Part shown: piece after piece, positions 17,691 through 64,000 of the stretch | How positions within the stretch are numbered: position 1 is the stretch's first letter | How the letters are laid out: each line of letters starts with the position of its first letter | Assembly (NCBI GenBank): GCA_002790095.1 | Contig: PFUL01000007.1 | Coordinates: 1-64,000 of the forward strand | Direction of reading: 5' to 3' | Origin: Elusimicrobia bacterium CG_4_9_14_3_um_filter_62_55 | GTDB lineage: Bacteria; Elusimicrobiota; Elusimicrobia; UBA1565 | Length of the DNA: 64,000 bases | Position numbers and translations under genes: made by a program | The notes under the pieces: model-generated | What the model was told of the DNA's origin: nothing | Databases searched by the model: none | What the model saw: only the letters and a program-made list of their open reading frames with translations

Positions 17691-17732
17691 GCCTTCCGGA
17701 ACGCAACGGTTGTGCCGGGCTATATTTTACGA

Positions 17733-17744
17733 GGGTCTGACCCC
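17733..17744. repeat. GGGTCTGACCCC palindrome
   Basis: A short perfect inverted repeat (GGGTC-T-GACCC) in the 186-bp gap between the cytochrome gene and the broken ORF6N gene. Such GGGTCTGACCC palindromes are often seen beside mobile or REP-like genes; here nothing else supports a mobile element. Confidence 0.35.
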
Positions 17745-17892
17745 AGTAAAGGGCGGAGGGAGAGCAACAGTTCTCAAACCGCTCCCGGCCTCACCCTCCT
17801 GGACCGATTCCGCTTTAAAATCCTCAAGAAACCGAATCGGCCTACCCAGATCATACCGGATTTCTGGAGGTCAAGGCGATGAACCGACGCGC

Positions 17893-44310: not shown

Positions 44311-44781
44311 ATGACCATGCGACGCCTCCGCACCCGCTCCTTTCCGGACGAACAGGACTTCCTGCTGATCCTCGCCGTACTCGCCCTCTCCTTCTTCGTG
44401 TTGCGCCAGCGCGGCTGGCATGCCGATCGCAATCCGGTAGTCGCGGCGGTGGGAAGTTCCGCGGCGATGGACGGACTTTGGCGGGATTCGGTGCGTCCGC
44501 TTAAGGACGGCGAGGACAACCGCCCGCCGGCCGACCCGGATATCGTCTGGGACGAACGCGATCTCTACCGACGCGCGGTCGCGCCCGCGCCGGCGCCCCG
44601 TCCGCTGGAGAAACAACCCGAAGCTGAGCCCGAATCCTATTTTTTCCCGGAGCCGCGGCCCGCGGCCCGGCCCGCCGCCGAAAGGCCGCGGCTCTCTCCG
44701 ACGCGCATCTCGTTCGCCGAACGCGAAAGCGCCCACCGCAGCAAAGCCTTTCTGAGAAAACCGGAAGACGAAAAGCGCTAG
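44311..44781 (+). CDS. Small single-pass membrane protein with a Pro-rich tail
   Basis: A 156-aa protein with one membrane segment (about residues 17-32, FLLILAVLALSFFVL) and a long Pro/Ala/Glu-rich disordered tail. Its last four bases overlap the convergent gene at 44778. Function unknown. Confidence 0.5.
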   Translation: MTMRRLRTRSFPDEQDFLLILAVLALSFFVLRQRGWHADRNPVVAAVGSSAAMDGLWRDSVRPLKDGEDNRPPADPDIVWDERDLYRRAVAPAPAPRPLEKQPEAEPESYFFPEPRPAARPAAERPRLSPTRISFAERESAHRSKAFLRKPEDEKR

Positions 44782-47207: not shown

Positions 47208-48200
47208 TCAATCAAGGACCCGCGTCCTTCCCTGTAGGCTCTCGGCCAGCAGCCGCAGACCCTGCGCGATCGACACCTTCGGCGCGTAGCCGAGATCCCG
47301 CTTCGCCGCCCCGATGTCGAACCAATGCGGCGTCGAAAGTTCCTTGGCGAGAAAGCGCGTCATCGGCGGCTCGGATCGAATTCCGAACAGGCCGTACACC
47401 GCCTCCAGCGCCGCTCCGAGCCCGTACGCCAACGGCGCGGGAATCGTCCCCTCCACGGGAGGAAGGCCTGCGGCGTCAAGAATCCCGTCGATCAGATCCC
47501 ACAACGGCATCGGCTCTCCGTTGGAGAGGAAGTAGACCTTTCCCCCGAGCGCCGGCAGGCGGTCGCAGGCGAGCAGATGCGCGTCGGCCGCGTTGTCGAC
47601 GAAGACGGAATCCACAAGCGGATTTCCCCGACCGACCCGCCGCAGCCTTCCGGCGCGACGACGGGCGACCAGCCGCGGGAGGATGTGATTGTCGCCGGGA
47701 CCCCAGATCAGATGCGGGCGCAGCGCGACCACCGCGAGACGCTCGGAGTTCGCCGCCAGCGCGAGTTGTTCCGCCTCGGCCTTCGTCTCGGGGTAAGAGG
47801 CCAAGAAGGACTCCGGATAGCCGAGGCTTTCATCGACGCCCTCCTGCCCCGAGGCTCCGAACACGACCGACGGGGAACTCGTGTAAATCAATTTCGGGAC
47901 GCCTTCGACCAGACACGCGTCGATCACGCTCGCGGTCCCGCTTACGTTCGCCCGAAAGAATTCCGCGTGCGGACCCCACAGGCCCGCCTTCGCCGCAGCG
48001 TGATAAACCGCGTCGCAGCCCCGCACGGCCTCGAGCAGTTTCGGGTCGGAGAGATCCGCCCGGAAGGTTTCCACGCCCATCTCCCGCAGTTCCGGGTAGT
48101 CCGCGCGCGACAGACTGCGCACGCGGTCGCCCCGCTCAACGAGTTTGCGGCAGAGGGCTTTCCCTAAAAACCCGCCGCCGCCGGTGACGAGGACGTTCAA
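47208..48200 (-). CDS. oleD: OleD, NADPH-dependent beta-keto acid reductase
   Basis: A 330-aa short-chain dehydrogenase of the 3-beta-HSD/epimerase group. The N-terminal nucleotide-binding motif is TGGGGFLG, and the catalytic Tyr and Lys are in YPETKAEAE. In the Ole pathway it reduces the 2-alkyl-3-keto acid made by OleA to the 2-alkyl-3-hydroxy acid, the substrate of OleC. The start is TTG 48200, overlapping the oleC stop (TTGA), so the two are coupled. It is the last of the pfa-ole genes. Confidence 0.92.
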   Translation of the reverse strand: MNVLVTGGGGFLGKALCRKLVERGDRVRSLSRADYPELREMGVETFRADLSDPKLLEAVRGCDAVYHAAAKAGLWGPHAEFFRANVSGTASVIDACLVEGVPKLIYTSSPSVVFGASGQEGVDESLGYPESFLASYPETKAEAEQLALAANSERLAVVALRPHLIWGPGDNHILPRLVARRRAGRLRRVGRGNPLVDSVFVDNAADAHLLACDRLPALGGKVYFLSNGEPMPLWDLIDGILDAAGLPPVEGTIPAPLAYGLGAALEAVYGLFGIRSEPPMTRFLAKELSTPHWFDIGAAKRDLGYAPKVSIAQGLRLLAESLQGRTRVLD

Positions 48201-49846
48201 AGCCGCCGCTCGGCCCAGCGGGCTAGCTTTTCCCGGAATATCTTCGCGTTGTGCCGAATGTCTACCGGGAAGGAGTCATGGAAGAGGAAGGTCTCGATGC
48301 CTTTCGTGTGCGCGTATTTGGCTCCCCGCTCCCGGAGTTCCTGAATCAGACGCGGCTTCGGCCACCCCTTGGCCTGCGGCTCCAACTCGACGCACAGCAC
48401 GGGCTTCTTGACGCCGTTGCCGACCCCGACCAGCGCGGTGCGGGCGACCCCCTTAATCGTGTTGAACACCCCTTCGCACGGAACGGTGAACAGGGTACCC
48501 GCGCCGGTGTCGACGCGATGCGCCTTGCGCCCGCAAAACCACAATCGCCCGCTTTGATCGAAATACCCGAGATCCCCCATGCGGTGATAAAACAATCCGG
48601 TCTGCGGTTCCTCGATTTTCGCGAGCGCGGTCGATCGATCTCGGTTGAAATAGCGCCGCGTCGCGACCGGTCCCTGGACGACGATTTCTCCGACGACGCC
48701 CGCCGGCGCTTCGAGGGAGTCGTCCCAATCCGCGATCGGGCCGTCCGTGATCGTGATGATCTTGACCGTCATCTCCGCGACCGGGCGGCCGACGCAGACG
48801 CCGAGACCCTCTTCGGTGCCGACCCGCGTCTCGCGCAGGATTTCGCGGCTGCCGATCGTCGCCACCGGAAGGCACTCGGTCGCTCCGTAGGGCGTGTGAA
48901 TTTCTGCGCCGGACGCCAGGCGGCCTTCAAATCGTGCGAGCACGGCCGGCGACACCGGCGCCCCCGCCGAGATCATGCGACGCATCGTCGGGATGCTCTC
49001 GCCCTGTTCATGCAGCCAGCGGCCGACTTGGTCGAGCAGCGCGGGGGAGCCGAACATCTGGGTCGCGCTGAATTCCCGGATCGCGTCGACGATGTTGCGG
49101 GGATCGACCGAACCGGGCCGGGTGAAATCCATCTCCGGAACGACCGCCGAAGTCCCCAACGCGGGACCAAACAACGCGAACAACGGGAAGGTCGGCACGT
49201 CGATTTCGCCGGGGCGGATGCCGTACATTTGCTTGAGCATGCGCACCTGGGAGTCGAAAATCGAGTGACTGTACACGACGCCCTTGGGCGTTCCCGTGGA
49301 CCCGCTCGTGAAGAGAATCGCCGCAGTCTCTTCCGGACGAGTCTTGACCAGGTACTCGGAACCGTCTGAGGAGCGCAGGTCCGCCAGGGATCGCCCCCCC
49401 CAGAACCAGCGCCGACCGACGGTCACCGTCGTCCGCAAGGTTCGCTTGGCCCAGCCCAGCGCGATCCGCGCGGCGTGAGCTTTCGAAACGCCGATAAACG
49501 CCTCAGGCTCGGCTTCATCCAGGCAAGACTTCAAATTCGAGATCCCCATTCCGGGGTCGACAAGAACCGGGACCGAGCCCGCCTTAAACAACGCGAAGGT
49601 CAGAGAGAAAAACTCGGGCGAAGGAGGCACCATCAACACGGTTCGCACCCCTCGGCCGATGCCGGCTTCGGCGAGTCCGCGCGCGAGACGGCTGCTTTCT
49701 TCATCCAGCGCTCGGAAGCTTAAGCGGATCCACCGGTAGCGTCCGGACGCGTCGCGGCCGGCGGGGCAGGCGACGGCGAGCGCGTCGGGCTGCTCCCGCG
49801 CCATCCGGGGAAGGTGCGACGCGATATTGACGAACGTGTCGAGCAT
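48197..49846 (-). CDS. oleC: OleC, beta-lactone synthetase
   Basis: A 549-aa member of the acyl-CoA synthetase/AMP-ligase superfamily. The P-loop-like motif is LFTSGSTGTPKGVVYSH. Further motifs include FPLFALFGPALG and TPYGATECLPVA, the latter close to the OleC consensus, and the C-terminal domain carries RVDTGAGTLFTVPCEG. OleC activates the 2-alkyl-3-hydroxy acid with ATP and closes it to a beta-lactone. An upstream in-frame extension to 49924 is ignored because ATG 49846 lies four bases after the oleB stop, where homology begins. Confidence 0.93.
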   Translation of the reverse strand: MLDTFVNIASHLPRMAREQPDALAVACPAGRDASGRYRWIRLSFRALDEESSRLARGLAEAGIGRGVRTVLMVPPSPEFFSLTFALFKAGSVPVLVDPGMGISNLKSCLDEAEPEAFIGVSKAHAARIALGWAKRTLRTTVTVGRRWFWGGRSLADLRSSDGSEYLVKTRPEETAAILFTSGSTGTPKGVVYSHSIFDSQVRMLKQMYGIRPGEIDVPTFPLFALFGPALGTSAVVPEMDFTRPGSVDPRNIVDAIREFSATQMFGSPALLDQVGRWLHEQGESIPTMRRMISAGAPVSPAVLARFEGRLASGAEIHTPYGATECLPVATIGSREILRETRVGTEEGLGVCVGRPVAEMTVKIITITDGPIADWDDSLEAPAGVVGEIVVQGPVATRRYFNRDRSTALAKIEEPQTGLFYHRMGDLGYFDQSGRLWFCGRKAHRVDTGAGTLFTVPCEGVFNTIKGVARTALVGVGNGVKKPVLCVELEPQAKGWPKPRLIQELRERGAKYAHTKGIETFLFHDSFPVDIRHNAKIFREKLARWAERRL

Positions 49847-49850
49847 CGGA

Positions 49851-50810
49851 TTAATCAAGCGGGTTCGCCGCGAAAAATCCGCGGACCAGTTCGAGAATTT
49901 CTTCGGAGGCGTCTTCCAATACATAGTGTCCGCAATCGGGAAATCGGTGAACGGCGGCTTTCGGCAGCCGGCGCTCCCATTCGACGAGATAGTCGACGTC
50001 GAAGACGAAGTCCCGCATGCCCCAGCAAATCATCGCCGGAGTCTCCCGAAAGCGACCCAGTCCCTCGGCCGTCTTTGAAATCAGATCGTATCCGGGGTCC
50101 TCCGGCCGCAACGGGATGTCCTGGACGAATCGCAGAACCGCCGCCCGATTGCTCCAACTGTCATACGGCGCCAAATAGGCGTCTCTTACATCCGGCGCCA
50201 GCGGCCTGCGGGTCACGCAATCCGACGCGGCTCCCCGGCAGAAGGCGTTGAATCCTCGCACGAGCACGGTTCCAAGCGGCGTCCGTGCTAATTTCAGCTG
50301 CCACGGCACCGCCTTCCCTTCGGGCGGATGAAACGCCGCAGTATTAAGGATCACCAAGCGCTTGACCTTCTCGGGATGCCGCCGCGCCCACGCCATGGCG
50401 ATCATTCCGCCCCAATCGTGAACGACCAAAGAAACGTCGTCGCCGACTCCCGCGTGTTTGAGCAGACGGTCCAAATCGTCGACGCGGCGCTCCAGGGTAT
50501 ACGGATAGTCGCCGACCGCAGGCTTCTCGGAAAGACCGCAGCCGATGTGGTCGGGAACGATCACCCGATGATCCCGCCGAAGTTCCGCGGCGAGCTTTCG
50601 GTAGTAAAACGACCACGTCGGGTTTCCGTGGACCATCACCACGGGCCGGCCGGAACCTTCGTCGAGGTAGTGCTGACGAAATCCCCGCTGGTCGAGATAA
50701 TTCGACGCGAACGGATACTGCGCCTTTACGGCAGGGCGTCCCATAACCCCCATGAGGCCCTGCACGGCGGGGCTTCCGCCCCGCCAGGCCCGCTGTTTCA
50801 AAATCACCAT
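49851..50810 (-). CDS. oleB: OleB, beta-lactone decarboxylase, with a repeat-encoded N-terminus
   Basis: A 319-aa alpha/beta hydrolase of the haloalkane-dehalogenase-like group. HGNPTWSFYYR forms the oxyanion region, VHDWGGMIA holds the nucleophile Asp, and DCGHYVLED the catalytic His. OleB removes CO2 from the beta-lactone to give the cis-alkene. The likely ATG at 50810 overlaps the oleA stop (ATGGTGA). Residues about 8-27 (WRGGSPAVQGLMGVMGRPA) are encoded by a copy of the 57-bp repeat; the normal OleB sequence begins at YPFASNYLDQ. Two ATG codons inside the repeat are alternative starts. A further open frame upstream to 51062 overlaps oleA and is not supported. Confidence 0.9.
   Translation of the reverse strand: MVILKQRAWRGGSPAVQGLMGVMGRPAVKAQYPFASNYLDQRGFRQHYLDEGSGRPVVMVHGNPTWSFYYRKLAAELRRDHRVIVPDHIGCGLSEKPAVGDYPYTLERRVDDLDRLLKHAGVGDDVSLVVHDWGGMIAMAWARRHPEKVKRLVILNTAAFHPPEGKAVPWQLKLARTPLGTVLVRGFNAFCRGAASDCVTRRPLAPDVRDAYLAPYDSWSNRAAVLRFVQDIPLRPEDPGYDLISKTAEGLGRFRETPAMICWGMRDFVFDVDYLVEWERRLPKAAVHRFPDCGHYVLEDASEEILELVRGFFAANPLD
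50732..50788 (-). repeat. 57-bp palindromic element in oleB
   Basis: The copy lies on the minus strand, in the same orientation as oleB, and contains CCTGGCGGGGCGGAAGCCCC followed by CATGGGGGTTATG. It keeps the reading frame and has about six differences from the pfaA tandem copies. Confidence 0.9.
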
Positions 50811-51850
50811 TCCCACCCCAGCATCATGCAGTTTAGACCGCTTCCGATTCCAAGAAACCCGACGCGGTCGCCTTCCCTTAGAAACCCGCGCTCCTCGGCG
50901 AGCGCCGCGGTCATCGGAAGGCTGACGGTCCCGATGTTTCCCAAAAACGAGTAGGTCGAAAAATCCTTCTCCTCGGAGACCCCCAAGGTCTTCAGGATCG
51001 CGTCCTTGTGTCCGGAACCGACCTGATGACAGATCACCCGGTCCACCGCCGAAGCGCTCCACTCCAATTTATTCAAGAACGCGTCCCAGGTTCTAATCCC
51101 CAGCGACACGCCGTGTTCGAGCACGGAGACCGAATCGGTCGCCATGAATTCCCGGTGCATGTCCCGTCCGCCCGCTCCCTTGGAAAGGCCCCAGGTACAC
51201 AACCGATGATGCTCCGGCGCGGCAAGCGACACGCCCCCGCGAAGCGAACGCCCGCGCGCCCCGAAGGACCCGTCGCTCAGCACGACGGCGACCGCGCCGG
51301 AGCCGCCGGTGAAGGTGGCCAGCGAGGTTTTGAACAGGTCCATGTTTCTAGAGGAGAGCAGCTTCTCGATGGCGATCTCGTTGATCTCCCTGGACGATTC
51401 GCAGGAGACGACGAGTCCCGCGCGGATTTGTCCCAGCTCGATGCGGTTGGCGGTCTCCAAAATCCCGTTGAGCACGCCGAGACAGGCGTTGCTTAAATCG
51501 TAGATGAGCGCGTTGTCGCGCACGCCGATCTCGGAGGCGACGGCGCAGGCCGTGGCGGGTTCGAACTGTTCGCGGCAAACGCCCGCGTAGATCAGGCTCC
51601 CGATCGCTTCCGGTTCGACGCCCGCGCGGGCAAGCGCCTTCTTGGCCGCCGCCGCCGCGCCCTTCGAAAGCGGGGCCCCTTCCTCCCACCAGCGCCGCTC
51701 GACGATGCCCGTCAGGCTCTCCAGTTGGCCGGAGGGGATATGCAAAGACGCGTACGCCGGCGCGAGACGCTCCTCAATCTCCGCGGAACTCACGACCACC
51801 GGCCCGAGTTCGTAGCCGATCGCGTCGAGCCTCACCTTTCTGTATCTCAC
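50804..51850 (-). CDS. oleA: OleA, thiolase-like head-to-head condensing enzyme
   Basis: A 348-aa KAS III/thiolase-fold enzyme. Catalytic C123 sits in LSNACLGVLNG, the His in VICHQVGSGH and the Asn in FLGNIGTVS. The OleA-specific glutamate is E97 in CREQFEPATA, the residue that in OleA deprotonates the alpha-carbon. OleA joins two fatty acyl thioesters by a non-decarboxylative Claisen condensation to a 2-alkyl-3-keto acid. GTG 51850 overlaps the stop of the Pfa subunit (GTGA), so condensation of Pfa products may be directly coupled to their synthesis. The open frame further upstream lies inside pfaC and is not used. Confidence 0.93.
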   Translation of the reverse strand: MRYRKVRLDAIGYELGPVVVSSAEIEERLAPAYASLHIPSGQLESLTGIVERRWWEEGAPLSKGAAAAAKKALARAGVEPEAIGSLIYAGVCREQFEPATACAVASEIGVRDNALIYDLSNACLGVLNGILETANRIELGQIRAGLVVSCESSREINEIAIEKLLSSRNMDLFKTSLATFTGGSGAVAVVLSDGSFGARGRSLRGGVSLAAPEHHRLCTWGLSKGAGGRDMHREFMATDSVSVLEHGVSLGIRTWDAFLNKLEWSASAVDRVICHQVGSGHKDAILKTLGVSEEKDFSTYSFLGNIGTVSLPMTAALAEERGFLREGDRVGFLGIGSGLNCMMLGWEW

Positions 51851-54800
51851 GCGTCCGCCCCCGCGGCCCGAATCGTGAAATCCACCATTTGGTAAATCAC
51901 GCGGCCGTCGACGCTGAGGAAGCCGTCGGCCCGGATTCGCCGAAGTTCCTCGTCGATTTCCGTGACGACCGCCTGCACCGTCACTTGCGAGTCGGCCGGA
52001 AGAATCTGGCCGCGATAGATCCACCGGTGCTTCTCACCGAGCGCGAGACTTTCGAAGCGGGCGCAGGCCGCCGCTCCCCAACGCTCGAGCGCGACGGTTT
52101 TGAGCAGCTGCAAAAAGGACTCCAACCCGAGCGAACCCGGCCACACGGGATCCTGATGGAAATGCGCCTTGAAGAACCAGGCCTCGGGATTCACGGCGGC
52201 GGTGCCCTCGATAAAACCCAGCCCCTTCGGCCCGCCGTCGGGGACGAAGCAGGTGACGCGCTCGACCATGCGCCAACGATCATCGGGCATCGGCGCCTCG
52301 CGAGGAACGTCGAACGACCGGGCGCGCGCGGTTTCGGCCGCATCGGGTTCGTAGAGCGCGGCGTCGCGGATTCCGATTTGGTCGGCGAGCGCGCCCTTCG
52401 AGAAAAAGCCGAAGTAGGTCGTTCCTTCATAGACCGTCTCTTGGCGGCACAGCATCTTATAGGAATAGTGCTGGATGATCATCCCGCCCGAATTGGAAAC
52501 GCCGGTCAGCGTCACCGTCGTCCTCAGCGTCCCCATCCCCGGCGTCACCGCTTGAAGCTGAACCGCCTCGCCGCCGAGGTTTCTAAAGGAAAGATCCTCG
52601 CCGGAAGTCAGCGCGGAGCCCAGATACGCCGCGAGCCAGCCGCAAGGCTGCAAGGCGGCCTCCAGCAGCACCGCGAAAGGCATCACAGGCTGGCGGTCCG
52701 CGTCGAAGTACCATTCGGAGGAAGGCACATCGTATTCCGCGTCGATCACCGCTCCGGCCTCCAGCACCCACGGACGAGCCTTCTCGATGCGCGTGATCCG
52801 GTTGAGGAACTTGTAAGGCGCACCCGGCAAACGCGCGATCACGCGCTCGGAATCAAAAATCTTATACCGCTCGCCGAACGCCTCCGACGGCTTGCCGATC
52901 GCGAAGGCGGTGATCGACGCGTCATCGAACAGCGCCGCCGGCTCCGAACGGTCCCATAGCCGCTCCAGATCCGTCTTATGGGTTCCCGAGAGCCGCACCG
53001 ACATATTGAGCATCTCCACGACGGGGCGCCCGTCGGCGAACATCAGTGCGTCCGCGATCGCGTACGGCGTTCCGTCGTCCTGATAGCCGATTTCCTTAAG
53101 CGAAATCTCGTAGGCGGCGGTCTTCGTCGACGCGATCACCTGGCCCCGGCACTTGAGCACGCTCGCCGCGCCGGGGATCGGCTCGTAAACGACCGAGTCC
53201 TTCTCGGCGACCCAACCGAAGCGCAGCAGCATCGTGCGAAAAGCGTGCAGACAGCACTCGTACATCAACGTACCGGGCATCACCTGATCGTCGACGAAGT
53301 GACAGGTCAAGAACCAATCGTCCGGATGAATGTCGGCTTCGGCGCGCAGCTGTCCCAGCCCGAAGCGGCCGCCCGTCGGGTCGAAGCGCGTCACCCGGTC
53401 GATCAATTTCATGCGCCCATCCGGAAGTCCGACCGGGTCGCGCAGAGGGAGCTCCGGAAACATCCGGCCGCGCCGAATCTCGTCGACCCGCGCGTCGTCG
53501 TAAATCTCGACGCCGTCGAGCGGCGCGAGCGGCGCGAAACCGCCGGTCACCTTTCCCGGCATCTCCCGAAGGTCCAATCGGGTGTGAACGATTCCTTTTC
53601 CGCCGTCGAGTTCCTCCTGCGTGAAGAAACCCGCGACGCCCTTTCGCATCGTCAGCAGCAATTCCCCGTCGACCGTCGCGTCGAACTCGAAGCGGAACAA
53701 ATGCGTCTCCCCCTGACGGAAGAAGCGAAGGATGCGGATGTCGTAGACGATCGTGGAGCCGGGTCCCGGCAGGGGACGGTGAAAGCTCACTTCGGCGTCG
53801 AGGAGCCGGTAAACGGCTTTCCCTTTCGTGACGGCGTCGACTCCCAAAAAACCCGATAAAAACAGATCCGCCTGTCCCGCTTCCACCGCGATGCAGACGG
53901 GAATCCGACCTCCGTCCAAATACCAGGCGCCGCTCTCGATGTCGTGCTCGGTGACGACGCGGCCCGAGCCCATGGAATGCGGTTCGCCTTCAATCAAGGT
54001 GATCCGGTCCACCAACTGCAGCGGGGCGTCCGGAAGGCGGACGCGGGTCGGATACGAGTCGGCGTGCGCGAAGGACGGTCCCAAAACCGCGCCGATCTTT
54101 CCCATCGCGATCTCAAAGCATTGCTCCTTGGTAAGTGCCCGGGGCACCGCGTTCGGATCGCGTTCGACGCCCGGGACGGCAACGGCAACCAAGGCCGTCC
54201 GCGCCGCATCCGCAAATTTCATGTACGCCGCGTGCGCGTCCGCCGTCTTGCGCCGCGCCTCCACGAACCAGTTCACCGGCGCCGGCGCGACGGAAGCGGG
54301 CGAAGCGACGGGAACCGGCCTCGGCGCGCGCCCCGAAACGACTGGCGCCGGAGACGGATCGGGGTCCGGGCGGTACTCCACCGGAATGCGCATCGCCGGC
54401 CGCTCGGGCCTGGGCTGTTCGAAAGGTCCGTTCACCGCCGCGAAATCCAATTCCTTTCCGGAAACGAACGCCGCGGCCAACGCGCGCAGCGTCGCCGACA
54501 CCGCGGACTCGCCGCGCGGACAGACGGCGGCCGCTTCGTGGACCCGGTCCCCGAGAATGCCCCCGATCATCCGCGTACAGGACGCCCCCGGTCCCATCTC
54601 GATGAACAATCGCGCGCCGTCGCGATAGGCTGACTCGACGGTTTTAGGAAAATCGACGGGGCCGAGCGCCTGAGCGAGGATCGCGTCGGCCGCGGATTCC
54701 CGGTTCGGAGCGTACGCCTCCCCGGTCGCGCCGCTGTAAAACGAGACCCCCTCGGGCGCTTCGACCGGGAACAGATGGAGTTCCCGGTACGCGTCCTTGA

Positions 54801-57800
54801 CCGGCTCCGCCGCTTCGCAATGCAACGTGGTTGCACCGTCGACCGGCATGGAGCGGGCCCCCATCTCGCGTACGAGCGCCTCCACTGCCCCGCGCTCCCC
54901 GCCGATTACCGTCTCGTGCGGCGTGTTCACGATCAACCGGTAGACCCGCTCCCGGTTTTTCAGCGCCGCGTCGACCGAATCCTTGGACGCGTCCACCACG
55001 GCCGCGACCCATTCAAGCGGCTCGCCTTTGGGAAGCTTCCAGCGCGTCCGCGCCGAGCGGCATTCTCCGGTCAGCTCCCGCGTGAACAAGGTCGACTTTT
55101 CCAGACGCCGGAGCATCTCGTCGCGGTCCTTCCACGCGCCGAGCGCGAACAACGCCGCCGACTCCCCGAGGCTTAAGCCCACGGCTTGATCGCAGGGAAG
55201 CCCGAACCCGCGCATCAAATCGGCGGTGAAGGCGCCCAGACATACCTGGCCGTATATCGCGTCGCGGGGGGAGAAGGCTTCCGGACGCTCCCCCCAAAAA
55301 ATTCCGGCGCGGTACTGCGAAGCCAAAAATTCATTCTCGGCGTCCTGGCGGCGCAGAGGCTCGGGCCAAGCCAGCGCTAGGTCCCGCCCCATCCCGTGAA
55401 ACGCGTTTCCCAACCCCGGAAACACGAACGCCGTCTTGAAGCCGGATTCCAGAGGCGCGGGGCGGTACAGCGCTCGCTCGCCTGCGCGTCCGTGCGCGCG
55501 TTCCGGTTCGCGCCCGGCGCGCTCCAACAGCGCCGCCGCCGATCGGCGCGCCTCCACCGCGTCGATGGCGACGACAGCCAAAGAACGCGGCCCTCGTCCG
55601 ACGGCGCGCTCGGGGGAGAGACTCTCCAACTGCGCGCGAAGCCCTTCGACCGACTCGGCGCGCGCCGCGAACAATCGCGCGCGAGGGGTCCGCAACCCGG
55701 CGCCGGAAGGTTTCGTCGGCGCCTCCTCGAGCACCGCGTGTACGCAGCCCCCGTCGATGCCGAACGCGGAGACCGCCGCTCGCCGCGGTCCCGACTGGCG
55801 GTCTCTCATCCAATAACTCGCCGACTCTCCCGGGAGCACCTCTTTATGCAAAGCCAGCGCGGCCTTCACGAACGACGCCAATCCGGAGGCGGCGCCCGCG
55901 TGGCCGATGCGATCCTTCGTCGTCGAAATCCGCCACGCCGGAACGCGCCCATCGAGAAAGCGTTCGATCCCGGCCCGCTCCGCGGCGTCTTCGGCCGGAG
56001 CGCCGCTGCCGTGCGCTTCGAAAAGTCCCACCGTCCTCGGGTCGATCGCCGCATCCGAGTAGGCGCGCCGCATCGCTTCGGCCACGGTCTCCGACGCGGG
56101 CACGGGGGCCTCGCCCGCGGGAGTCGAGGCCGATCCGACTCCTCGCACCACCGCGTAGACCCTGTCCCCGTCGCGCAGCGCGTCGTCGAGGCGCTTCAGT
56201 GCGAGCGCGGCCGCCCCTTCCCCGGGGATCGTTCCATCCGCGTCTTCGCGAAACGGTCGGGCCATGCCGGATTTGGAGTACGGGCGCGCGGCGTCGCTGC
56301 CGAGCACCGCGCGCGCGTCGCAGGCCAAATCCACGGCCCCGACCAACGCCTGGTCGAGCGCTCCGCTCTGCAAGGCGCGAACCGCCGCCTCCAACGCCGT
56401 CAGACCCGAACTTTCCTCGCTTTGCACGGTGAAGCTCGCTCCGCCCGCGCGGAATTCCCGCGCGACGCGGCTGGCGACGATCCCGCCGAGCGCCCCGAGC
56501 GTCCGGTCGGCGTTGAGCGCCGGCCCGAAGGCGTCGCGCTTTTCCTCCGGCAGCCGCCAGCGGCAGTGGAAATTCGTCGCGTTGAGGTCCAGGGCCAAAC
56601 CGATGAAGACTCCGGTCGAGAGCTTCGGACCGTCCTCCCAGGCCGCGTCATCGACCGCGGCGGCGGCGGTCTTCAGCATCAACAGCTGCTGCGGCAACGC
56701 CTGTTCCAATTCCTTCGGCGGCACGCGGAAGCGGCCGAGAGGCAGATCGAACGCGTCGATGGGATAAGCCCTGAAGGACTCCCCGGAGCGTCCGCGCCAG
56801 CGCGGCGCGCGCGGTTTCTCACCGTCCGAACCGAAAAAACGTTCCTCGAGTGCGTCGCGCGAATCCCACGGACCGAACTGCGCTCCGATTCCGACGACGG
56901 CGACCGGAACGCCGCCGCTTTTCGGCGGCCTCGCAGTGCGCTTCACGCGGCGTTTGCCGCGCCTCGGCGGTTCGTACTCCTCGACCAGCACATGCGCGTT
57001 GATCCCCCCGAAACCGAAGCCCGACACAGCGGCCTTGCGGGTTCCGCGCGACTTCCACGGCTCCGCCTCGGCGAGAACGCGGAAAGGACCGCTCTCCAAA
57101 TCCACGCCCGGCGCCGGTTTCTCGAAATGCGCGGTCGGCGGCAGCGACTTGTGCTTGAACGCGAGCAGCACCTTCATCAGTCCCGCCGCGCCGGCGGCGG
57201 TCAAAAGGTGCCCGACGTTCGACTTCACCCCGCCGATCACCGCCTGTCCAGGTTTCCATCCGGCTTCACCCCACAGCGCGCGCAGGCTCGACGCCTCCAC
57301 CGCGTCGCCCAAAGGCGTCCCGGTCGCATGACACTCGATGAGCTCCACCTGCTCCGGCCGCCACTCGGCGGCTTCGTACGCCGCCCGCATCGCCCGCAGC
57401 TGTCCCTCGGCGCTCGGCGCGAGCAGACTCCCTTCGATGTCGTTGGAAAGTCCGATCCCGCGAATCACGCCGTGCACCCGGTCGCCGTTTTTGAAGGCGT
57501 CATCGAGGCGCTTCAAGACGAAGAGTCCCGCGCCTTCCCCGACCACCAATCCGTTTCCCTTCGCATCGAACGGGGAACAGATTCCGTTCGGTGAGAGCGC
57601 GCGCAATTGAGAAAATCCCATCTGGGTGTACAGCGAATCCGGCCGCGAAACTCCGCCCGCGAGCATCGCGTCGGCGCGGTGCGCATTGAGCTCGTCGCAA
57701 GCGAGTTTAAGGGCGTAAAGGGAAGAGGCGCAGGCGGCGTCGAGCGTGTAGGCCCCGCCGCCCAGGCCGAGCGCGCGCGCGACGAGACCGGCGGGCAGCC

Positions 57801-58266
57801 CCGTAACGAAGCGATTGAGCGGCGTCTTAAGCGGCCGGTGTTCGAAGGTTTCAGCGGCGAGCGCCGAAGAACCGTCCGTCGGCAGCGCGATGTTTCCGAA
57901 GACGACGCCGATGCGTCCCGGATCGGTACCGCGCAGATCCGCAGACCGGACCGCGTCTCGCGCGGCGTGCAGAGCAAAGTGACACACCGGATCCAGATTC
58001 TTTAGGAATTCCTCTCCGAGGCCGATCCCCGCGCGGTCCAATTCGAAATGCTGAACGAAACAGGCTTTCTTCGAGACGATCTTATCCGCCGTCGCGGGGC
58101 GCGGGTCGTAGAGCTCGTCGACCGGACGGAGCCAGCGTCCCTTCGGCGGCTCCGAGGCGCAGTCGCGGCCGGAGGCGATCAACTCCCAGAACGCGTCGAG
58201 CGTTGCGGCGCCGGGAAAGACGCCTCCAAGTCCGACGATCGCGATAGGTTCCTGCCTGTGGGGCAT
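51847..58266 (-). CDS. pfaC: PfaC-type PUFA synthase subunit: KS-CLF-AT-DH-DH
   Basis: A 2139-aa megasynthase. KS (1-430) has Cys176 in DAACASSLYAL and the two His motifs CHATGTPLGD and SNVGHLL. The second KS-like domain (455-890) lacks the active Cys (QSEESSGLTAL), as in a chain-length factor. An acyltransferase follows (about 945-1260: VFPGLGNAFHGMG, serine in GLSLGESAAL). Four hot-dog units (about 1375-2130) form two FabA-like dehydratase/isomerase pairs; HFVDDQVMPGTLMYE and HFHQDPVWPGSLGLE mark two catalytic halves, and the first unit carries CIAVEAGQADLF. The internal AT between CLF and DH resembles the myxobacterial Pfa3 plan more than the separate PfaB of Shewanella. It starts six bases after pfaA. 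Confidence 0.93.
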   Translation of the reverse strand: MPHRQEPIAIVGLGGVFPGAATLDAFWELIASGRDCASEPPKGRWLRPVDELYDPRPATADKIVSKKACFVQHFELDRAGIGLGEEFLKNLDPVCHFALHAARDAVRSADLRGTDPGRIGVVFGNIALPTDGSSALAAETFEHRPLKTPLNRFVTGLPAGLVARALGLGGGAYTLDAACASSLYALKLACDELNAHRADAMLAGGVSRPDSLYTQMGFSQLRALSPNGICSPFDAKGNGLVVGEGAGLFVLKRLDDAFKNGDRVHGVIRGIGLSNDIEGSLLAPSAEGQLRAMRAAYEAAEWRPEQVELIECHATGTPLGDAVEASSLRALWGEAGWKPGQAVIGGVKSNVGHLLTAAGAAGLMKVLLAFKHKSLPPTAHFEKPAPGVDLESGPFRVLAEAEPWKSRGTRKAAVSGFGFGGINAHVLVEEYEPPRRGKRRVKRTARPPKSGGVPVAVVGIGAQFGPWDSRDALEERFFGSDGEKPRAPRWRGRSGESFRAYPIDAFDLPLGRFRVPPKELEQALPQQLLMLKTAAAAVDDAAWEDGPKLSTGVFIGLALDLNATNFHCRWRLPEEKRDAFGPALNADRTLGALGGIVASRVAREFRAGGASFTVQSEESSGLTALEAAVRALQSGALDQALVGAVDLACDARAVLGSDAARPYSKSGMARPFREDADGTIPGEGAAALALKRLDDALRDGDRVYAVVRGVGSASTPAGEAPVPASETVAEAMRRAYSDAAIDPRTVGLFEAHGSGAPAEDAAERAGIERFLDGRVPAWRISTTKDRIGHAGAASGLASFVKAALALHKEVLPGESASYWMRDRQSGPRRAAVSAFGIDGGCVHAVLEEAPTKPSGAGLRTPRARLFAARAESVEGLRAQLESLSPERAVGRGPRSLAVVAIDAVEARRSAAALLERAGREPERAHGRAGERALYRPAPLESGFKTAFVFPGLGNAFHGMGRDLALAWPEPLRRQDAENEFLASQYRAGIFWGERPEAFSPRDAIYGQVCLGAFTADLMRGFGLPCDQAVGLSLGESAALFALGAWKDRDEMLRRLEKSTLFTRELTGECRSARTRWKLPKGEPLEWVAAVVDASKDSVDAALKNRERVYRLIVNTPHETVIGGERGAVEALVREMGARSMPVDGATTLHCEAAEPVKDAYRELHLFPVEAPEGVSFYSGATGEAYAPNRESAADAILAQALGPVDFPKTVESAYRDGARLFIEMGPGASCTRMIGGILGDRVHEAAAVCPRGESAVSATLRALAAAFVSGKELDFAAVNGPFEQPRPERPAMRIPVEYRPDPDPSPAPVVSGRAPRPVPVASPASVAPAPVNWFVEARRKTADAHAAYMKFADAARTALVAVAVPGVERDPNAVPRALTKEQCFEIAMGKIGAVLGPSFAHADSYPTRVRLPDAPLQLVDRITLIEGEPHSMGSGRVVTEHDIESGAWYLDGGRIPVCIAVEAGQADLFLSGFLGVDAVTKGKAVYRLLDAEVSFHRPLPGPGSTIVYDIRILRFFRQGETHLFRFEFDATVDGELLLTMRKGVAGFFTQEELDGGKGIVHTRLDLREMPGKVTGGFAPLAPLDGVEIYDDARVDEIRRGRMFPELPLRDPVGLPDGRMKLIDRVTRFDPTGGRFGLGQLRAEADIHPDDWFLTCHFVDDQVMPGTLMYECCLHAFRTMLLRFGWVAEKDSVVYEPIPGAASVLKCRGQVIASTKTAAYEISLKEIGYQDDGTPYAIADALMFADGRPVVEMLNMSVRLSGTHKTDLERLWDRSEPAALFDDASITAFAIGKPSEAFGERYKIFDSERVIARLPGAPYKFLNRITRIEKARPWVLEAGAVIDAEYDVPSSEWYFDADRQPVMPFAVLLEAALQPCGWLAAYLGSALTSGEDLSFRNLGGEAVQLQAVTPGMGTLRTTVTLTGVSNSGGMIIQHYSYKMLCRQETVYEGTTYFGFFSKGALADQIGIRDAALYEPDAAETARARSFDVPREAPMPDDRWRMVERVTCFVPDGGPKGLGFIEGTAAVNPEAWFFKAHFHQDPVWPGSLGLESFLQLLKTVALERWGAAACARFESLALGEKHRWIYRGQILPADSQVTVQAVVTEIDEELRRIRADGFLSVDGRVIYQMVDFTIRAAGADA

Positions 58267-58272
58267 CGGATT

Positions 58273-61200
58273 CTAGACCGCCGCCCCGTTTTTAAACGCC
58301 GCATCCAAACCGGCGTCGAGCACGCAGTCGTAGCCGCTCATCCGCGCGACCACCGCGCCCGCATCATCGATAAAATCCACATCGGCGCGCGCGCGCCGGG
58401 CCGCAGCCTCGATCACCTTGGCCCTTAAAATCACCCCACCCTTCGGGAAGCCCGCCCGAAACTGCTTGTAGGACGCGAACCCCGTCGGCAAGCACGGCAT
58501 CCCTTTGCGCTCTCGCGACCAGACGATCAGCGCCTGAAACGCGGCATCGATCGCCGCCGGATCTGTGATCCAGCGCGAACGCAGCGGCTTCTTCATCCAT
58601 TCCGACGGAACCGGCGCGGTTCGCGCTCGGCAAACGATTCCCGCGTCGGACAAACCATCGACTGATTCGATGAAGCGCATCGGTTCGCCGTGGAACAGAT
58701 GCTCGTTGTAAATGCGTTCCGCGGATAGAGAGGAACGATCCAAATCCAGAGCGACCCCTTCCGGCGCTTCGCCTGCATGACCGAGCAGCACTCGCGCCCG
58801 CGCCCGCGGAGCCCCGTCGGAAGAGCGCATTTCCACCGGGCAAACCCCATCGCGAATCCTACCCGCGTAAAAGCGCAGCCGCGCCGGTTTATCCAAAACC
58901 ACGCCCTTAAGCACCCGAAAATCCTCAATCGCGGAAAAACCCAATCCCGGATTCGCGTGCAGGGCGGCGTGCGCGAGCCATTCGGCCATCAGCGCCGCAG
59001 GCAGCACCGGCTTTCCCGCCAACCGGTGGGAATTGAGGACCGGATGATCCTCCAGCGCCACAGTTCGTTCAAACGCAAACGGCATCGGCGCCTCTCCCAA
59101 CACCACCAACTCCGAAGGGCACGCGGGGTCCGCGAGCGCGTCGACCAGCAATTTCGCCCCGGAAGACACATCGATCAGCCCCACTCCCTCGGCCTCGAAG
59201 ACCTTCTCCAGCGCCGGCGTCACCATTCCGCCGCGCCACGGTCCCCAGTTAAACGATACGGCGCGAATGCCGCAGCTTCGGGCGAGCTTATTAAGCGCCT
59301 CGTTGGCCATCGCGTAATCGACCTGGCCCTTTCGTCCGAAGCGCGCGGTCGTCGAAGAGAAAAAGACGGCGAATTTCGCCTCACCCGGATCGAGAGCCCC
59401 CAACAGCGCCGCGGCCCCGTCAAGCTTCGTGCCGAACACCTGATCGAACTGCTCGGCGGTCTTGTCGGCGATCAAGCGGTCGGCCAGAACTCCCGCGCCG
59501 TGCACGAGACCCCGCACCGGGCCGTAGACGGACCTCAGTTCCTGAAACAGGGCTTTCATCGCGGACGCGTCCCGCGCGTCGAGACTGCGGTAAACCGCGG
59601 TCGCGCCGGAGTTTTCGATCTTCTTGAGGCTCGCCTCGATCTCGCGGCGCGCGAGCACCGCGTGTACGCGTCCCTGCAGCGCCTTCGGAGACATCACGCC
59701 TTCGGCAGCCAGGATCGCTTTCTTCAGCGCGGCGTCGTCGTTCGCCGAAGCGTACGGATCGACGCCCGCCGGAATCTCGCTGCGGCCCAGCAAAACCATG
59801 GTCGGCTTCCACGCCGCGGCGAGGGCGGCGGCGCAGGCGGCGGTGACGCCGCGGGCGCCGCCCGTCACGACGACCAACTCTCCAGGGGAGACGGGGGCCG
59901 CCCTGGGGGCGGGCGCGAACGATCGTTCGACCAGAGCGAAGCGCCGCGCGCCGTCGAGGCCCGTCTCGAGCGGACCGCGCGCCAAACATTCGTCGACTAC
60001 GGCGGCCGCGTCGAACGCGCCGCAGTCGATCGCCTTGCAAAGGACAGCATCCCATTCGCGGGCGGCGGTTTTCGCGAGTCCCGCGAGCGCGCCCGAGAGC
60101 GGGTCGCCGCGGAAGTTCTCGAATCCGAAGCGGCCGCCGAGCGCGGTCAGCGTGCAGAAAAACCGGAGCCGCGCCGCAGCACAGCGTTTGGAAAAGAGAA
60201 GCGCGTTCCGGAGAAAGGCGGCGTCGACGATTTCGGCCGCGATCACGACCCCTGCGACGCCGTCCAAGGATTCGTCGAAGGACGGCGGAACGACTTTCGC
60301 CTTTCCTCCTTCGGCTGCAAAAGCCTTCGCGAGCGCGTCGGCTCGCGTGTCGCCCTCAGCGACGATCAGGACGGTTTCGCCCGCGAGGCGAACCGCCCGT
60401 TCAGTTTTTTTTCCGGTCTCGACAGCCTCCACCCGGCTCGTATTGAGCGGGGCTCCGGCCGCTTCGGCGGACGCCTTCTGGTGGGGCGGAAGCCCCTCGG
60501 TGCCGGGCTTCATGGGGGCTATGGGACGCTCGGCGCCGTTTCCGTTCGACATATGCGCGATCACCTGGCCGAGCGTCTTGATCGTCCCGAGTTGATCCGG
60601 CCTCACGGTCGGCGCGCTCGGATACTTCTCCTGAAGCGCCGAAAGAATCTCAACGCGCTTGATCGAATCGATGCCTAAATCCGAATCGAGGCCCATGTCG
60701 AGATTGAGCATCTCGGCCGGGTAGCCCGTTTTTTCAGAGACGATCGCGATCAGCGCCCCCTCCATGCCCCGGCTTCCGTTCCCATTGGCGGAGACGGCGG
60801 CGCCCGCGCTGCCGTTCGCCATATGGGCGATGACCTGACCCAGCGTCTTGATCGTCCCGAGCTGATCCGGCTTTACGGCCGGGGCGTTCGGAAACTTTTC
60901 CTGCATCGCCGAAAGAATCTCGACGCGCTTGATCGAATCTATCCCCAGATCCGAATCGAGACCCATGTCGAGATTCAGCATCTCGGCGGGGTAGCCCGTT
61001 TTGTCGGCGACGATCGCGAGCAGAGAGGTTTCCATCCCGTGATTCCCGTTTCCGTTGGCGGCGACGGGGATCGGAGCGGAAACGGAAAGCCTCGGAGCGG
61101 CGAAAGCCGCCGGGGCGGGAGCGGGCGCCGCCGCGGCAACGATCGGCGCGGGCGCCGATAGAACGGGCAACGTCGTCACCGGCATCGCCGGAAGCGGCTG

Positions 61201-64000
61201 TCCGGCGACGAGCGCCTGCATCGCGAACAGCGCGCGTTCCTGGCCTTCAAGGAACTTGGCGTGCAGCTCGGCGGTCTGCTGCTGAATCTGGCGCAGCGCC
61301 TCGATCGCCTGATTCGGCGCGGCGAACGCGGGTACGGATTGAGGATTGGTTTCCTGTTTCACGACAAGTTTCTCCTGGCGGGGCGGAAGCCCCGCCGTGC
61401 CGGGCATCATGGGGGCTATGAGACGCTCGGCCTGGCGGGGCGGAAGCCCCGCCGTGCCGGGCCTCATGGGGGCTATGAGACGCTCGGCCTGGCGGGGCGG
61501 AAGCCCCGCCGTGCCGGGCTTCATGGGGGCTATGAGACGCTCGGGCGGCTTCGCCTTCACGGGCGGTCGCGGCGTATGCGGAGCGCGGTAATTCGCGCCG
61601 CTGATCAAAACGGTAAATCGCTTCTTCCCCTCAGGCGGCTTCGGCGCCTCGGGGTCCCACGCATCGAGCGCCACCGCGTGACCGCGAGCGGCGGCCCAAG
61701 CTAGAGCGCGCGCGAGGTCCGCGGCGCCGGAGCGTTTGCCCTGGGACGCGTCGAGCGCGCAGGCGGAGTGGGGCTTCTCGTCGAGAATCGCGCCGACCAA
61801 GCCGGTCAACCGCGCCCCGGGACCCACTTCCAGGAAGTCGGTCGCGCCGGCGGCGTACATCGCCTCGATCTCCGCGACGAATTCGACCGGCGAGGCGAGC
61901 TGTCCGGCCAACAACGCGCGCGCTTTCGACGCGGCGTCGGGATAGGCCCCGGCGCTCGCGTTCGCGTAGACGGGAAGTTCGGACTTCTTGAACGGCGCCG
62001 CGCCGAGCGCCGTTTCGAACGGCTCGCGAGCGCCCGCAACCAATTTGCTGTGAAACGCGGCCGAGACCGGGAGCCGCTTGACCCGCACGCCTTTCTCGCG
62101 CAAGAACGCCTCGGCGCGCTCGATCTCTCCGGTGGCCCCGGAAAGCACGCCCTGCGCCGGCGCGTTCTTATTGGCGAGAACCAGGTCGAACCCGCCCTCC
62201 TTTATATAGGAAGAAACCTCGTCCAAAGGCGCCTGAACCGCGAGCATCGAGCCTTTGTCGCCCAAGCCGTCGGCCATCAACTTCCCGCGCAGCGCGGAAA
62301 GGCGGAAGAATTCCTCCGGGCTGAGGCGTCCTGCCGCGCAAAGCGCGGTGAGTTCGCCGTAGCTGTGCCCGGCCGCAAGAGCGGGCTTCACGCCGTAACG
62401 CTTGAGCACGCGCGCGGCACCAAGACTGACCGCGCCGATCGCCGGCTGGGCGCGGCGCGTGTCGCGCAGCGCGCGCTCGTCGGCTTCCGCCGCCTCTGCG
62501 GTGAAGGTCGGATGCGGGTAGACGCGGTCGCTTAGGCGGCCTTCCCCTTCCGGATCGGTCCAAACGGCGTCGGCCTCGGCGAGCGTATCGATCATTTCGG
62601 GATAACGACAGGCAAGATCGCGCAGCATGCCGACGGACTGCGACCCCTGTCCCGGGAACAGGAACGCCAGCTTGCCGGGCGCGCCCGACCCGTAGTAAGC
62701 CCCATCCGGACTGCTCGCGCGCTTCGCGGCGACGAGCTTCCCGGCGCTCTCGAGAACGCGCGCCGCGTCGCCTCCTTTCTCGATGACGACCACGACGCGC
62801 TGGGCCGCCTTCGCGTCGAACGCAGCGCGGGAAACGGCGGCCGCGGCGCGCAGGGAACTCCACGCGGCGTCTTTCGGGAACACCGCGATCGTGCGAAGCA
62901 GCGCCTCGGTCGAGCCGGCCGAGAACGCGGCGATCGTCGTCTCCGCGTTCTCGTCGGGCGTCGCCTTCGCGGCGCCATGCTCTTCGAGCACGCAGTGAAA
63001 GTTGCTCCCGCCGAAGCCGAGCGCGCTGACCGCCGCTCGGCGCGGATGCGCCTCGCGCGGCAGCCACGGCCGCGGAGCGGTGTTCACGTAGAACGGACTC
63101 GCCCCCGGCTGCAGCTGCGCGTTCGGGCGGCGCACCTTCAGCGTCGGAGGCAAGGTCTTTCGCTCGAGCGAGAGCGCGGCCTTAATCACCCCGGCGACGC
63201 CGGCGGCGGCCTTCGCGTGGCCGATCATCGACTTCAGCGAACCGAGGGCGCACCAGGTCCCTTCCTGGGAGGCCTCGCGGTAGACCTCGCCGAGAGCGGA
63301 GGCTTCGATCGCGTCGCCGACCTTCGTCCCGGTGCCGTGCGCCTCGACCAACTCGACGGTCGTCGGAGAGACGCCGGAGCGGGCGTACGCGTCGCGCAGC
63401 GCGCGAACCTGGCCCTCGGCGCTGGGTTCGTAAATCGCCGTTCCGCGGCCGTCGCAGGAGGAGCCGATGCCGCGAATCACCGCGCGGATCCGATCCCCGT
63501 CGCGCTCGGCGTCGGCGAGACGCTTAAGGACGAGCATGCCGACTCCTTCGCCGAGGGTCGTGCCGTCGCCGTCGGCGTCGAACGGCTTCGCGTCGCCGCT
63601 CGGAGAGAGCGCCGGGGTCTTGCTGAAGCACATGTACATGAAGATGTCGTTGAAGGTATCGACGCCCCCGGCGACAACCAGCTCGCTCTTGCCGGTCGCA
63701 AGCTCCATCGACGCGAGATGCAATGCGCCCAGCGAACTCGCGCAGGCCGCGTCGACGACGCAATTGGTTCCGCCGAGATCCAGCTTATTGGCGATGCGTC
63801 CGGCGACGACGTTTCCCAGCAGTCCGGGGAAGGAGTTCTCCTGCCATCCGACATAGCCTTCGGAGATCCGCTCGACCGCGTCGTCGGCGATGGACGGATC
63901 GACGCCGGCGGCAAGCATGGCTTTTTTCCAAAGCGGGTGGCCGAGCCGCGCCCCGAGCGGAATCACGAGTTCGAGAGCTCCGGTCACGCCGAGAATCACG
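58273..64000 (-). CDS. pfaA: PfaA-type PUFA synthase subunit: KS-MAT-ACP-ACP-KR-DH (N-terminus outside window)
   Basis: 1908 residues are visible; perhaps 130-150 N-terminal residues lie beyond 64000. KS: Cys in VVDAACASSLG (visible residue 87), EAHGTGTKVGD and MIGHAKAA. Malonyl transferase: LFPGQGSQSVGM (near 447) and AAGHSYGELTAL (near 546). Two ACPs each contain LGIDSIKRVEIL (serine near 1020 and 1112). KR: VVTGGARGVTAA (near 1378) and VDYAMANEALNKL. A polyketide-type DH closes the protein (LEDHPVLNSHRLAGKP). Two ACPs is few for PfaA, which commonly has four to nine. Four copies of the 57-bp repeat are translated in linkers: three in tandem before ACP1 and one after ACP2. No enoyl reductase (PfaD) is in view; it may lie upstream. 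Confidence 0.95.
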   Translation of the reverse strand, partial: VILGVTGALELVIPLGARLGHPLWKKAMLAAGVDPSIADDAVERISEGYVGWQENSFPGLLGNVVAGRIANKLDLGGTNCVVDAACASSLGALHLASMELATGKSELVVAGGVDTFNDIFMYMCFSKTPALSPSGDAKPFDADGDGTTLGEGVGMLVLKRLADAERDGDRIRAVIRGIGSSCDGRGTAIYEPSAEGQVRALRDAYARSGVSPTTVELVEAHGTGTKVGDAIEASALGEVYREASQEGTWCALGSLKSMIGHAKAAAGVAGVIKAALSLERKTLPPTLKVRRPNAQLQPGASPFYVNTAPRPWLPREAHPRRAAVSALGFGGSNFHCVLEEHGAAKATPDENAETTIAAFSAGSTEALLRTIAVFPKDAAWSSLRAAAAVSRAAFDAKAAQRVVVVIEKGGDAARVLESAGKLVAAKRASSPDGAYYGSGAPGKLAFLFPGQGSQSVGMLRDLACRYPEMIDTLAEADAVWTDPEGEGRLSDRVYPHPTFTAEAAEADERALRDTRRAQPAIGAVSLGAARVLKRYGVKPALAAGHSYGELTALCAAGRLSPEEFFRLSALRGKLMADGLGDKGSMLAVQAPLDEVSSYIKEGGFDLVLANKNAPAQGVLSGATGEIERAEAFLREKGVRVKRLPVSAAFHSKLVAGAREPFETALGAAPFKKSELPVYANASAGAYPDAASKARALLAGQLASPVEFVAEIEAMYAAGATDFLEVGPGARLTGLVGAILDEKPHSACALDASQGKRSGAADLARALAWAAARGHAVALDAWDPEAPKPPEGKKRFTVLISGANYRAPHTPRPPVKAKPPERLIAPMKPGTAGLPPRQAERLIAPMRPGTAGLPPRQAERLIAPMMPGTAGLPPRQEKLVVKQETNPQSVPAFAAPNQAIEALRQIQQQTAELHAKFLEGQERALFAMQALVAGQPLPAMPVTTLPVLSAPAPIVAAAAPAPAPAAFAAPRLSVSAPIPVAANGNGNHGMETSLLAIVADKTGYPAEMLNLDMGLDSDLGIDSIKRVEILSAMQEKFPNAPAVKPDQLGTIKTLGQVIAHMANGSAGAAVSANGNGSRGMEGALIAIVSEKTGYPAEMLNLDMGLDSDLGIDSIKRVEILSALQEKYPSAPTVRPDQLGTIKTLGQVIAHMSNGNGAERPIAPMKPGTEGLPPHQKASAEAAGAPLNTSRVEAVETGKKTERAVRLAGETVLIVAEGDTRADALAKAFAAEGGKAKVVPPSFDESLDGVAGVVIAAEIVDAAFLRNALLFSKRCAAARLRFFCTLTALGGRFGFENFRGDPLSGALAGLAKTAAREWDAVLCKAIDCGAFDAAAVVDECLARGPLETGLDGARRFALVERSFAPAPRAAPVSPGELVVVTGGARGVTAACAAALAAAWKPTMVLLGRSEIPAGVDPYASANDDAALKKAILAAEGVMSPKALQGRVHAVLARREIEASLKKIENSGATAVYRSLDARDASAMKALFQELRSVYGPVRGLVHGAGVLADRLIADKTAEQFDQVFGTKLDGAAALLGALDPGEAKFAVFFSSTTARFGRKGQVDYAMANEALNKLARSCGIRAVSFNWGPWRGGMVTPALEKVFEAEGVGLIDVSSGAKLLVDALADPACPSELVVLGEAPMPFAFERTVALEDHPVLNSHRLAGKPVLPAALMAEWLAHAALHANPGLGFSAIEDFRVLKGVVLDKPARLRFYAGRIRDGVCPVEMRSSDGAPRARARVLLGHAGEAPEGVALDLDRSSLSAERIYNEHLFHGEPMRFIESVDGLSDAGIVCRARTAPVPSEWMKKPLRSRWITDPAAIDAAFQALIVWSRERKGMPCLPTGFASYKQFRAGFPKGGVILRAKVIEAAARRARADVDFIDDAGAVVARMSGYDCVLDAGLDAAFKNGAAV
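60477..60533 (+). repeat. 57-bp palindromic element in the ACP2-KR linker of pfaA
   Basis: A single copy (TCTGGTGGGGCGGAAGCCCC ... GGGACGCTCGG on the plus strand) with a few differences from the tandem copies. pfaA reads the opposite strand as AERPIAPMKPGTEGLPPHQ. Confidence 0.92.
61374..61544 (+). repeat. Three tandem copies of the 57-bp palindromic element in the MAT-ACP linker of pfaA
   Basis: Three head-to-tail units at 61374-61430, 61431-61487 and 61488-61544 differ at only one or two positions (CAT, CTC or TTC context). Each begins with the hairpin GGCGGGGCGGAAGCCCCGCC. pfaA reads the opposite strand as 19-residue repeats of the form AERLIAPM(K/R/M)PGTAGLPPRQ. Fifty-seven is a multiple of three, so every unit keeps the frame. 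Confidence 0.95.

What the first reader, a model, noticed from the sequence alone, without database searches (positions are those of the whole stretch)
47208..64000. Six-gene pfa-ole operon: PUFA synthase fused in one transcript with head-to-head olefin synthesis
The sequence shows pfaA, pfaC(+AT), oleA, oleB, oleC, oleD in this order on one strand, joined by gaps of at most six bases or by stop/start overlaps. Known biology: in Shewanella, pfa and ole genes lie apart in the genome, yet their products combine to make hentriacontanonaene, a C31 nonaene. Here the physical fusion predicts a dedicated pathway that hands polyunsaturated acyl chains from the Pfa synthase to OleA. The chain length may differ because this synthase has only two ACPs. 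The product would be a highly unsaturated membrane hydrocarbon in a lineage where none is described to my knowledge. This is the strongest candidate for an undescribed system in the window.
Basis: partly seen in the sequence, partly recalled or inferred. Interest (0 to 1): 0.92.

Follow-up and report, generated by a model that had tools for sequence, protein, structure and literature searches.

The report
Known PUFA-to-hydrocarbon operon in Elusimicrobiota
A single seven-gene operon in an uncultured Elusimicrobiota bacterium very probably builds polyunsaturated acyl chains and joins two of them into a long polyunsaturated hydrocarbon; the same gene order is already published for Geobacter bemidjiensis, which makes such a hydrocarbon, so this is a new host rather than a new system.

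Summary
pfaA, a pfaBC fusion, oleA, oleB, oleC and oleD lie on one strand with overlaps or gaps of at most 6 nt. The window cuts pfaA; on the same contig it runs to 64428, and the missing pfaD lies directly upstream (64410-66035). The operon therefore has seven genes, pfaD-pfaA-pfaBC-oleABCD, with a divergent tetR. Catalytic motifs are intact in every domain checked.

A dedicated line from PUFA synthase to olefin is the best reading, but it is not undescribed. A 2016 review reports the tandem order pfaD,A,B,C-oleA,B,C,D-pfaE in Geobacter bemidjiensis, which makes hentriacontanonaene (C31:9). Shulse and Allen (2011) classed this synthase as Type I. I found pfaC just upstream of oleA in 63 of 77 testable loci from Geobacterales, Planctomycetota and others, and in 22 of 29 Elusimicrobiota loci. 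pfaD and oleA co-occur in 54 of 341 Elusimicrobiota genomes. Two ACPs are ordinary for this type and give no reason to expect another chain length.

New here are the host phylum and, in passing, a genome search that found no stand-alone FabF, FabB or FabH; a Type R megasynthase may be the core fatty-acid synthase. Verdict: new member of a known kind.

The parts
58273..64000 (-). pfaA, 3' 5.7 kb of it inside the window (full gene C121:58273-64428, 2051 aa): KS (DAACASS, residues 226-232), MAT (GHSYGE, 687-692), two ACPs (LGIDSI, 1161 and 1251), KR, C-terminal PKS-type DH (HRLAGKPVLP at 1801, DAAFQ at 1961)
   Evidence: (TIGR02813, 1193 bits for the part in the window, cut-off 1010)
51847..58266 (-). 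pfaBC fusion, 2139 aa: KS (DAACASS), CLF (QSEES instead of the active-site Cys), AT (GLSLGES), FabA-type DH pair (CHFVDDQVMPG and AHFHQDPVWPG)
50804..51850 (-). oleA, GTG start overlapping the pfaBC stop (GTGA), 348 aa; catalytic Cys, His, Asn and Glu align with Xanthomonas OleA (3ROW)
   Evidence: (NF006720, 473 bits, cut-off 285)
49851..50810 (-). oleB, alpha/beta hydrolase of the haloalkane-dehalogenase kind, 319 aa, nucleophile motif HDWGG
48197..49846 (-). oleC, AMP-binding enzyme of the olefin beta-lactone synthetase kind, 549 aa
47208..48200 (-). oleD, SDR-type 2-alkyl-3-oxoalkanoate reductase kind, 330 aa, TTG start overlapping the oleC stop (TTGA), YPETK motif
63999..64000 (-). Pointer only: the operon goes on beyond the window. 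pfaD at C121:64410-66035 (ER; ORF open from 66086), overlapping pfaA; divergent tetR at C121:66138-66827 (+)
   Evidence: in a genome of the same genus (G188) tetR (81% identical), pfaD and pfaA lie in the same arrangement

Best explanation
A Type I (PfaBC-fusion) secondary-lipid synthase and a complete OleABCD pathway are co-transcribed as one operon, pfaD-pfaA-pfaBC-oleABCD. Shown: gene order, coupling, intact catalytic motifs, wide conservation of the joint cluster. Inferred: PfaA, PfaBC and PfaD build a polyunsaturated acyl chain (by precedent 16:4n-3) on the PfaA ACPs; OleA takes two such chains directly from the ACPs and condenses them; OleD reduces, OleC closes a beta-lactone and OleB decarboxylates it to a long polyunsaturated alkene, most likely C31:9 or a close relative. 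The ACPs must be activated by a PPTase encoded elsewhere, most likely the Sfp-like one on contig C182.
For: Junctions overlap or are at most 6 nt apart. All activities needed are present. Promoter-like sites on the operon strand lie upstream of pfaD and near the oleC/oleD boundary, none at the pfa-ole junction (weak evidence). Same order in Geobacterales, Planctomycetota and Elusimicrobiota; pfaD and oleA co-occur in 54 genomes of 341 when 60 have oleA and 58 pfaD, Fisher p about 6e-51, not corrected for kinship. G. bemidjiensis has this tandem cluster and makes C31:9 (PMC4882568; PMC3098273). In Shewanella the product needs pfa, and OleA expressed with pfaABCDE in E. coli gives the 31:8 ketone, with OleA drawing on acyl-ACP (PMC6463001).
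Against: No product is known from any Elusimicrobiota. P. profundum SS9 carries adjacent pfa and ole operons yet made no detectable hydrocarbon (PMC6463001). OleC and OleD score below the curated cut-offs of the NCBIfam olefin models (716 of 900; 413 of 580). No PPTase or PfaT gene lies in the cluster.
Confidence: 0.85

Rival explanations
1. The Ole proteins condense mainly saturated or mono-unsaturated chains from another source, and the linkage to pfa is incidental. Then the product is an ordinary long-chain mono-olefin, as in Xanthomonas.
For: OleA of Xanthomonas uses saturated acyl-CoA (general knowledge; the PDB relatives). The genome has a second megasynthase on C182 that could provide saturated chains.
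Against: oleA follows pfaC directly in 63 of 77 named loci and 22 of 29 Elusimicrobiota loci, and pfaD and oleA co-occur. No stand-alone FabF, FabB or FabH was found in this genome, so a FAS II pool is doubtful. OleA in PUFA producers is reported to use only the Pfa-derived chain (PMC6463001).
Confidence: 0.07
2. The Pfa synthase mainly makes polyunsaturated fatty acids for phospholipids, and the ole genes drain off a minor by-product, as in marine EPA producers.
For: Shewanella makes both EPA and C31:9 from one synthase (PMC6463001).
Against: In the Type I cluster of G. bemidjiensis the reported product is C31:9, and the review suggests that the pfa genes there primarily make the hydrocarbon (PMC4882568). 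Co-transcription with ole fits a dedicated line.
Confidence: 0.07

Closest known systems
pfaDABC-oleABCD-pfaE cluster of Geobacter bemidjiensis (Type I secondary lipid synthase plus ole)
   Same: Same gene order from pfaD to oleD, PfaB fused with PfaC in Type I, small number of ACPs in related Geobacterales loci; tandem ole genes; producer of C31:9 (PMC4882568; PMC3098273; synteny).
   Different: Host phylum; no pfaE (PPTase) next to the cluster here, the nearest candidate being on another contig; divergent TetR regulator; OleA 56-69% identical to relatives.
Shewanella pfaABCDE and oleABCD (C31:9)
   Same: Same enzyme set and the same predicted chemistry (PMC6463001).
   Different: In Shewanella the two operons are apart, and PfaB and PfaC are separate proteins.
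Photobacterium profundum SS9 adjacent pfa and ole operons
   Same: pfa and ole neighbours on the chromosome (PMC6463001).
   Different: Two operons with pfaT between them, no hydrocarbon detected; here one gene train without pfaT.

Membership tests
Type I secondary lipid synthase (Shulse and Allen 2011) | PfaBC fusion KS-CLF-AT-DH2 | tested here: met
   KS, CLF, AT and two FabA-type DH catalytic motifs in one 2139-aa protein
Type I secondary lipid synthase (Shulse and Allen 2011) | PfaA with KS-MAT-tandem ACP-KR | tested here: met
   TIGR02813 above cut-off
Type I secondary lipid synthase (Shulse and Allen 2011) | PfaD enoyl reductase in the cluster | tested here: met
   TIGR02814 at 641 bits, directly upstream of pfaA
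Type I secondary lipid synthase (Shulse and Allen 2011) | KS falls in the Type I clade of the KS tree | not tested
   No KS tree was built; only OleA was put on a tree
OleABCD head-to-head olefin pathway | OleA with Cys-His-Asn and the base Glu | tested here: met
   alignment with 3ROW
OleABCD head-to-head olefin pathway | OleB, OleC and OleD encoded beside OleA | tested here: met
   right families, order and motifs
OleABCD head-to-head olefin pathway | OleC and OleD pass the curated olefin equivalog cut-offs | tested here: inconclusive
   best specific hits but 716 of 900 and 413 of 580 bits; those models are drawn from Xanthomonas and Shewanella
OleABCD head-to-head olefin pathway | Long-chain olefin is made | not testable with these tools
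   needs chemistry
Hentriacontanonaene (C31:9) pathway | 16:4 acyl chain feeds OleA | not testable with these tools
   inferred from Geobacter and Shewanella precedents only

The most novel reading that the evidence does not exclude
In this Elusimicrobiota lineage, which appears to lack the type II condensing enzymes, type I megasynthases (Pfa and the Type R synthase) supply all acyl chains, and the pfa-ole operon is a dedicated hydrocarbon line whose product may be a major membrane lipid and may differ from C31:9.
Probability: 0.2. Interest if true: 0.55.

Novelty: new member of a known kind. Interest (0 to 1): 0.25.

Why it matters
It extends the joined PUFA-synthase and olefin pathway to about a sixth of sampled Elusimicrobiota species, a phylum where no such lipid is reported in the papers searched, and it supports the idea that pfa and ole evolved as one unit. 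It also points to polyunsaturated hydrocarbons as a possible biomarker for these uncultured bacteria. The side finding on missing FAS II condensing enzymes would matter more if confirmed.

Tried and rejected
Unusual product because of two ACPs: rejected, related loci have mostly two or three within the sequence held (some counts are cut by locus ends). C202 FabH-like protein as FabH: rejected, it is a type III PKS. TetR as a general partner: conserved in the same genus but not found in the other flanks examined. Operon as foreign DNA: composition is even across the operon (63-70% GC), no clear sign. One origin of OleA in the phylum: the quick tree puts the window and G187 apart from the other Elusimicrobiota, but the AU test does not reject one clade (p 0.126), so no transfer is claimed. 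The 2010 ole papers are not in the library. No structure prediction was made, since it could not decide chain length.

Full report
OBSERVATION. The window is C121:1-64000 of a 4.31-Mb, 202-contig genome, 95.4% complete. On the minus strand, ORFs for pfaA, a pfaBC fusion, oleA, oleB, oleC and oleD follow one another. Reading the junctions gives a 6-nt gap (pfaA/pfaBC), a GTGA overlap (pfaBC/oleA), a 7-nt overlap (oleA/oleB), a 4-nt gap (oleB/oleC) and a TTGA overlap (oleC/oleD). The window ends inside pfaA; on the contig it runs to 64428 and overlaps pfaD, whose likely start is 66035 (the relative G188 aligns from that Met). The ORF-finder starts for oleA, oleB and oleC are too far upstream; 51850, 50810 and 49846 are the better starts.

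ANATOMY. PfaA: KS-MAT-ACP-ACP-KR-DH. PfaBC: KS-CLF-AT-DH-DH; the CLF has QSEES in place of the active-site Cys. PfaD: ER. Catalytic motifs are intact in the domains checked. OleA aligns with Xanthomonas OleA 3ROW with Cys, His, Asn and the Glu base kept. OleB has HDWGG, OleC the adenylation motifs, OleD the Rossmann and YxxxK motifs. OleC and OleD are below the curated NCBIfam olefin cut-offs, which is expected of distant members but leaves a formal gap.

LINEAGE. G186, placed in the same family as the window's genome, has oleA on contig C132 of 63036 bases at 17140-18195. The record JACRDU010000154.1, titled 'Elusimicrobia bacterium', is also 63036 bases long and its oleA locus (L023) maps to the same start. 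The phylum is thus very probably Elusimicrobiota; this is an inference from matching contigs.

DISTRIBUTION. Of 77 named loci with at least 800 bases before oleA, 63 have the pfaC end directly upstream on the same strand; many continue to oleD. Hosts are Geobacterales/Desulfuromonadales, Planctomycetota and a few others. That search was seeded with close OleA relatives, so the fraction is not a survey of all OleA. In Elusimicrobiota 60 of 341 species genomes have OleA, 58 have PfaD, 54 both; some of the mismatches are broken contigs, as in G188. Full clusters were read in several families.

PRIOR ART. Shulse and Allen 2011 (PMC3098273) defined Type I with a PfaBC fusion in Geobacter and Gemmata, noted that ole genes are often linked to such clusters, and proposed that Type I supplies olefin precursors. 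A 2016 review (PMC4882568) gives the tandem order pfaD,A,B,C,oleA,B,C,D,pfaE in G. bemidjiensis and its C31:9. Allemann et al. 2019 (PMC6463001) showed that OleA with the Pfa synthase makes the 31:8 ketone in E. coli and proposed direct transfer from ACP.

MECHANISM. Shown: order, coupling, intact motifs, conserved linkage. Inferred: polyunsaturated chain on PfaA ACPs, direct hand-off to OleA, OleBCD processing to a polyene hydrocarbon. Exact chain length is unknown; C31:9 is the default. ACP number is reported to affect yield, and related loci have mostly two or three ACPs.

SIDE LEAD. In the same genome, the ketosynthase search found only the Pfa domains, a megasynthase on C182 and thiolase-like fragments; FabF was not found nor FabH, and the one other FabH-like hit is a type III PKS. 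The C182 gene (KS-AT-second KS-like-ACPs-KR-DH, 2786 aa) is followed by a PPTase and a carboxyltransferase gene, like Type R of Elusimicrobium minutum. Across 341 genomes Type R (136) and FabF above cut-off (118) overlap in only 2. The lists are from printed rows, search sensitivity is limited, and kinship is not corrected for. 28 of the 60 OleA genomes showed neither.

VERDICT. Real, correctly read, mechanistically sensible, and already known in kind. New host phylum.

Noticed in passing
G000 contigs C182, C202 and C121 (L187, L002): No stand-alone FabF/FabB or FabH was found in this 95%-complete genome; a Type R-like megasynthase with PPTase and carboxyltransferase genes may be the core fatty-acid synthase. 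In the phylum, Type R and FabF are nearly mutually exclusive (136 and 118 of 341 genomes, 2 with both).
   Followed up: partly
Elusimicrobiota genomes with OleA, e.g. G192-G210: 28 of 60 OleA genomes have neither FabF above cut-off nor the Type R region at the thresholds used; their main fatty-acid synthase is unexplained.
   Followed up: no
C121:66138-66827 (L003:6138-6827, +): TetR-type regulator divergent from pfaD; kept in a genome of the same genus (81% identity) but not seen beside pfaD in the other family members examined.
   Followed up: partly
window 44778-47177 (-): 799-aa protein with a signal-like N-terminus, TPR-like stretch and a C-terminal transmembrane-like segment, starting 30 nt after oleD; may be co-transcribed. 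No family hit above cut-off.
   Followed up: no
window about 61300-61600, in pfaA: Linker between MAT and ACPs holds three tandem copies of an 18-19-aa repeat (ERLIAPMxPGTAGLPPRQ), with a fourth variant copy after the second ACP.
   Followed up: no
OleA, about residues 215-235 (window about 51150-51210), and L016, L039, L055: Variable insertion relative to Xanthomonas OleA, about 11 residues here and about 65 in Phycisphaerae-type OleA.
   Followed up: partly
G000:C202:14606-17866 (L002): Type III PKS (DpgA/chalcone synthase-like) next to a methyltransferase gene.
   Followed up: no
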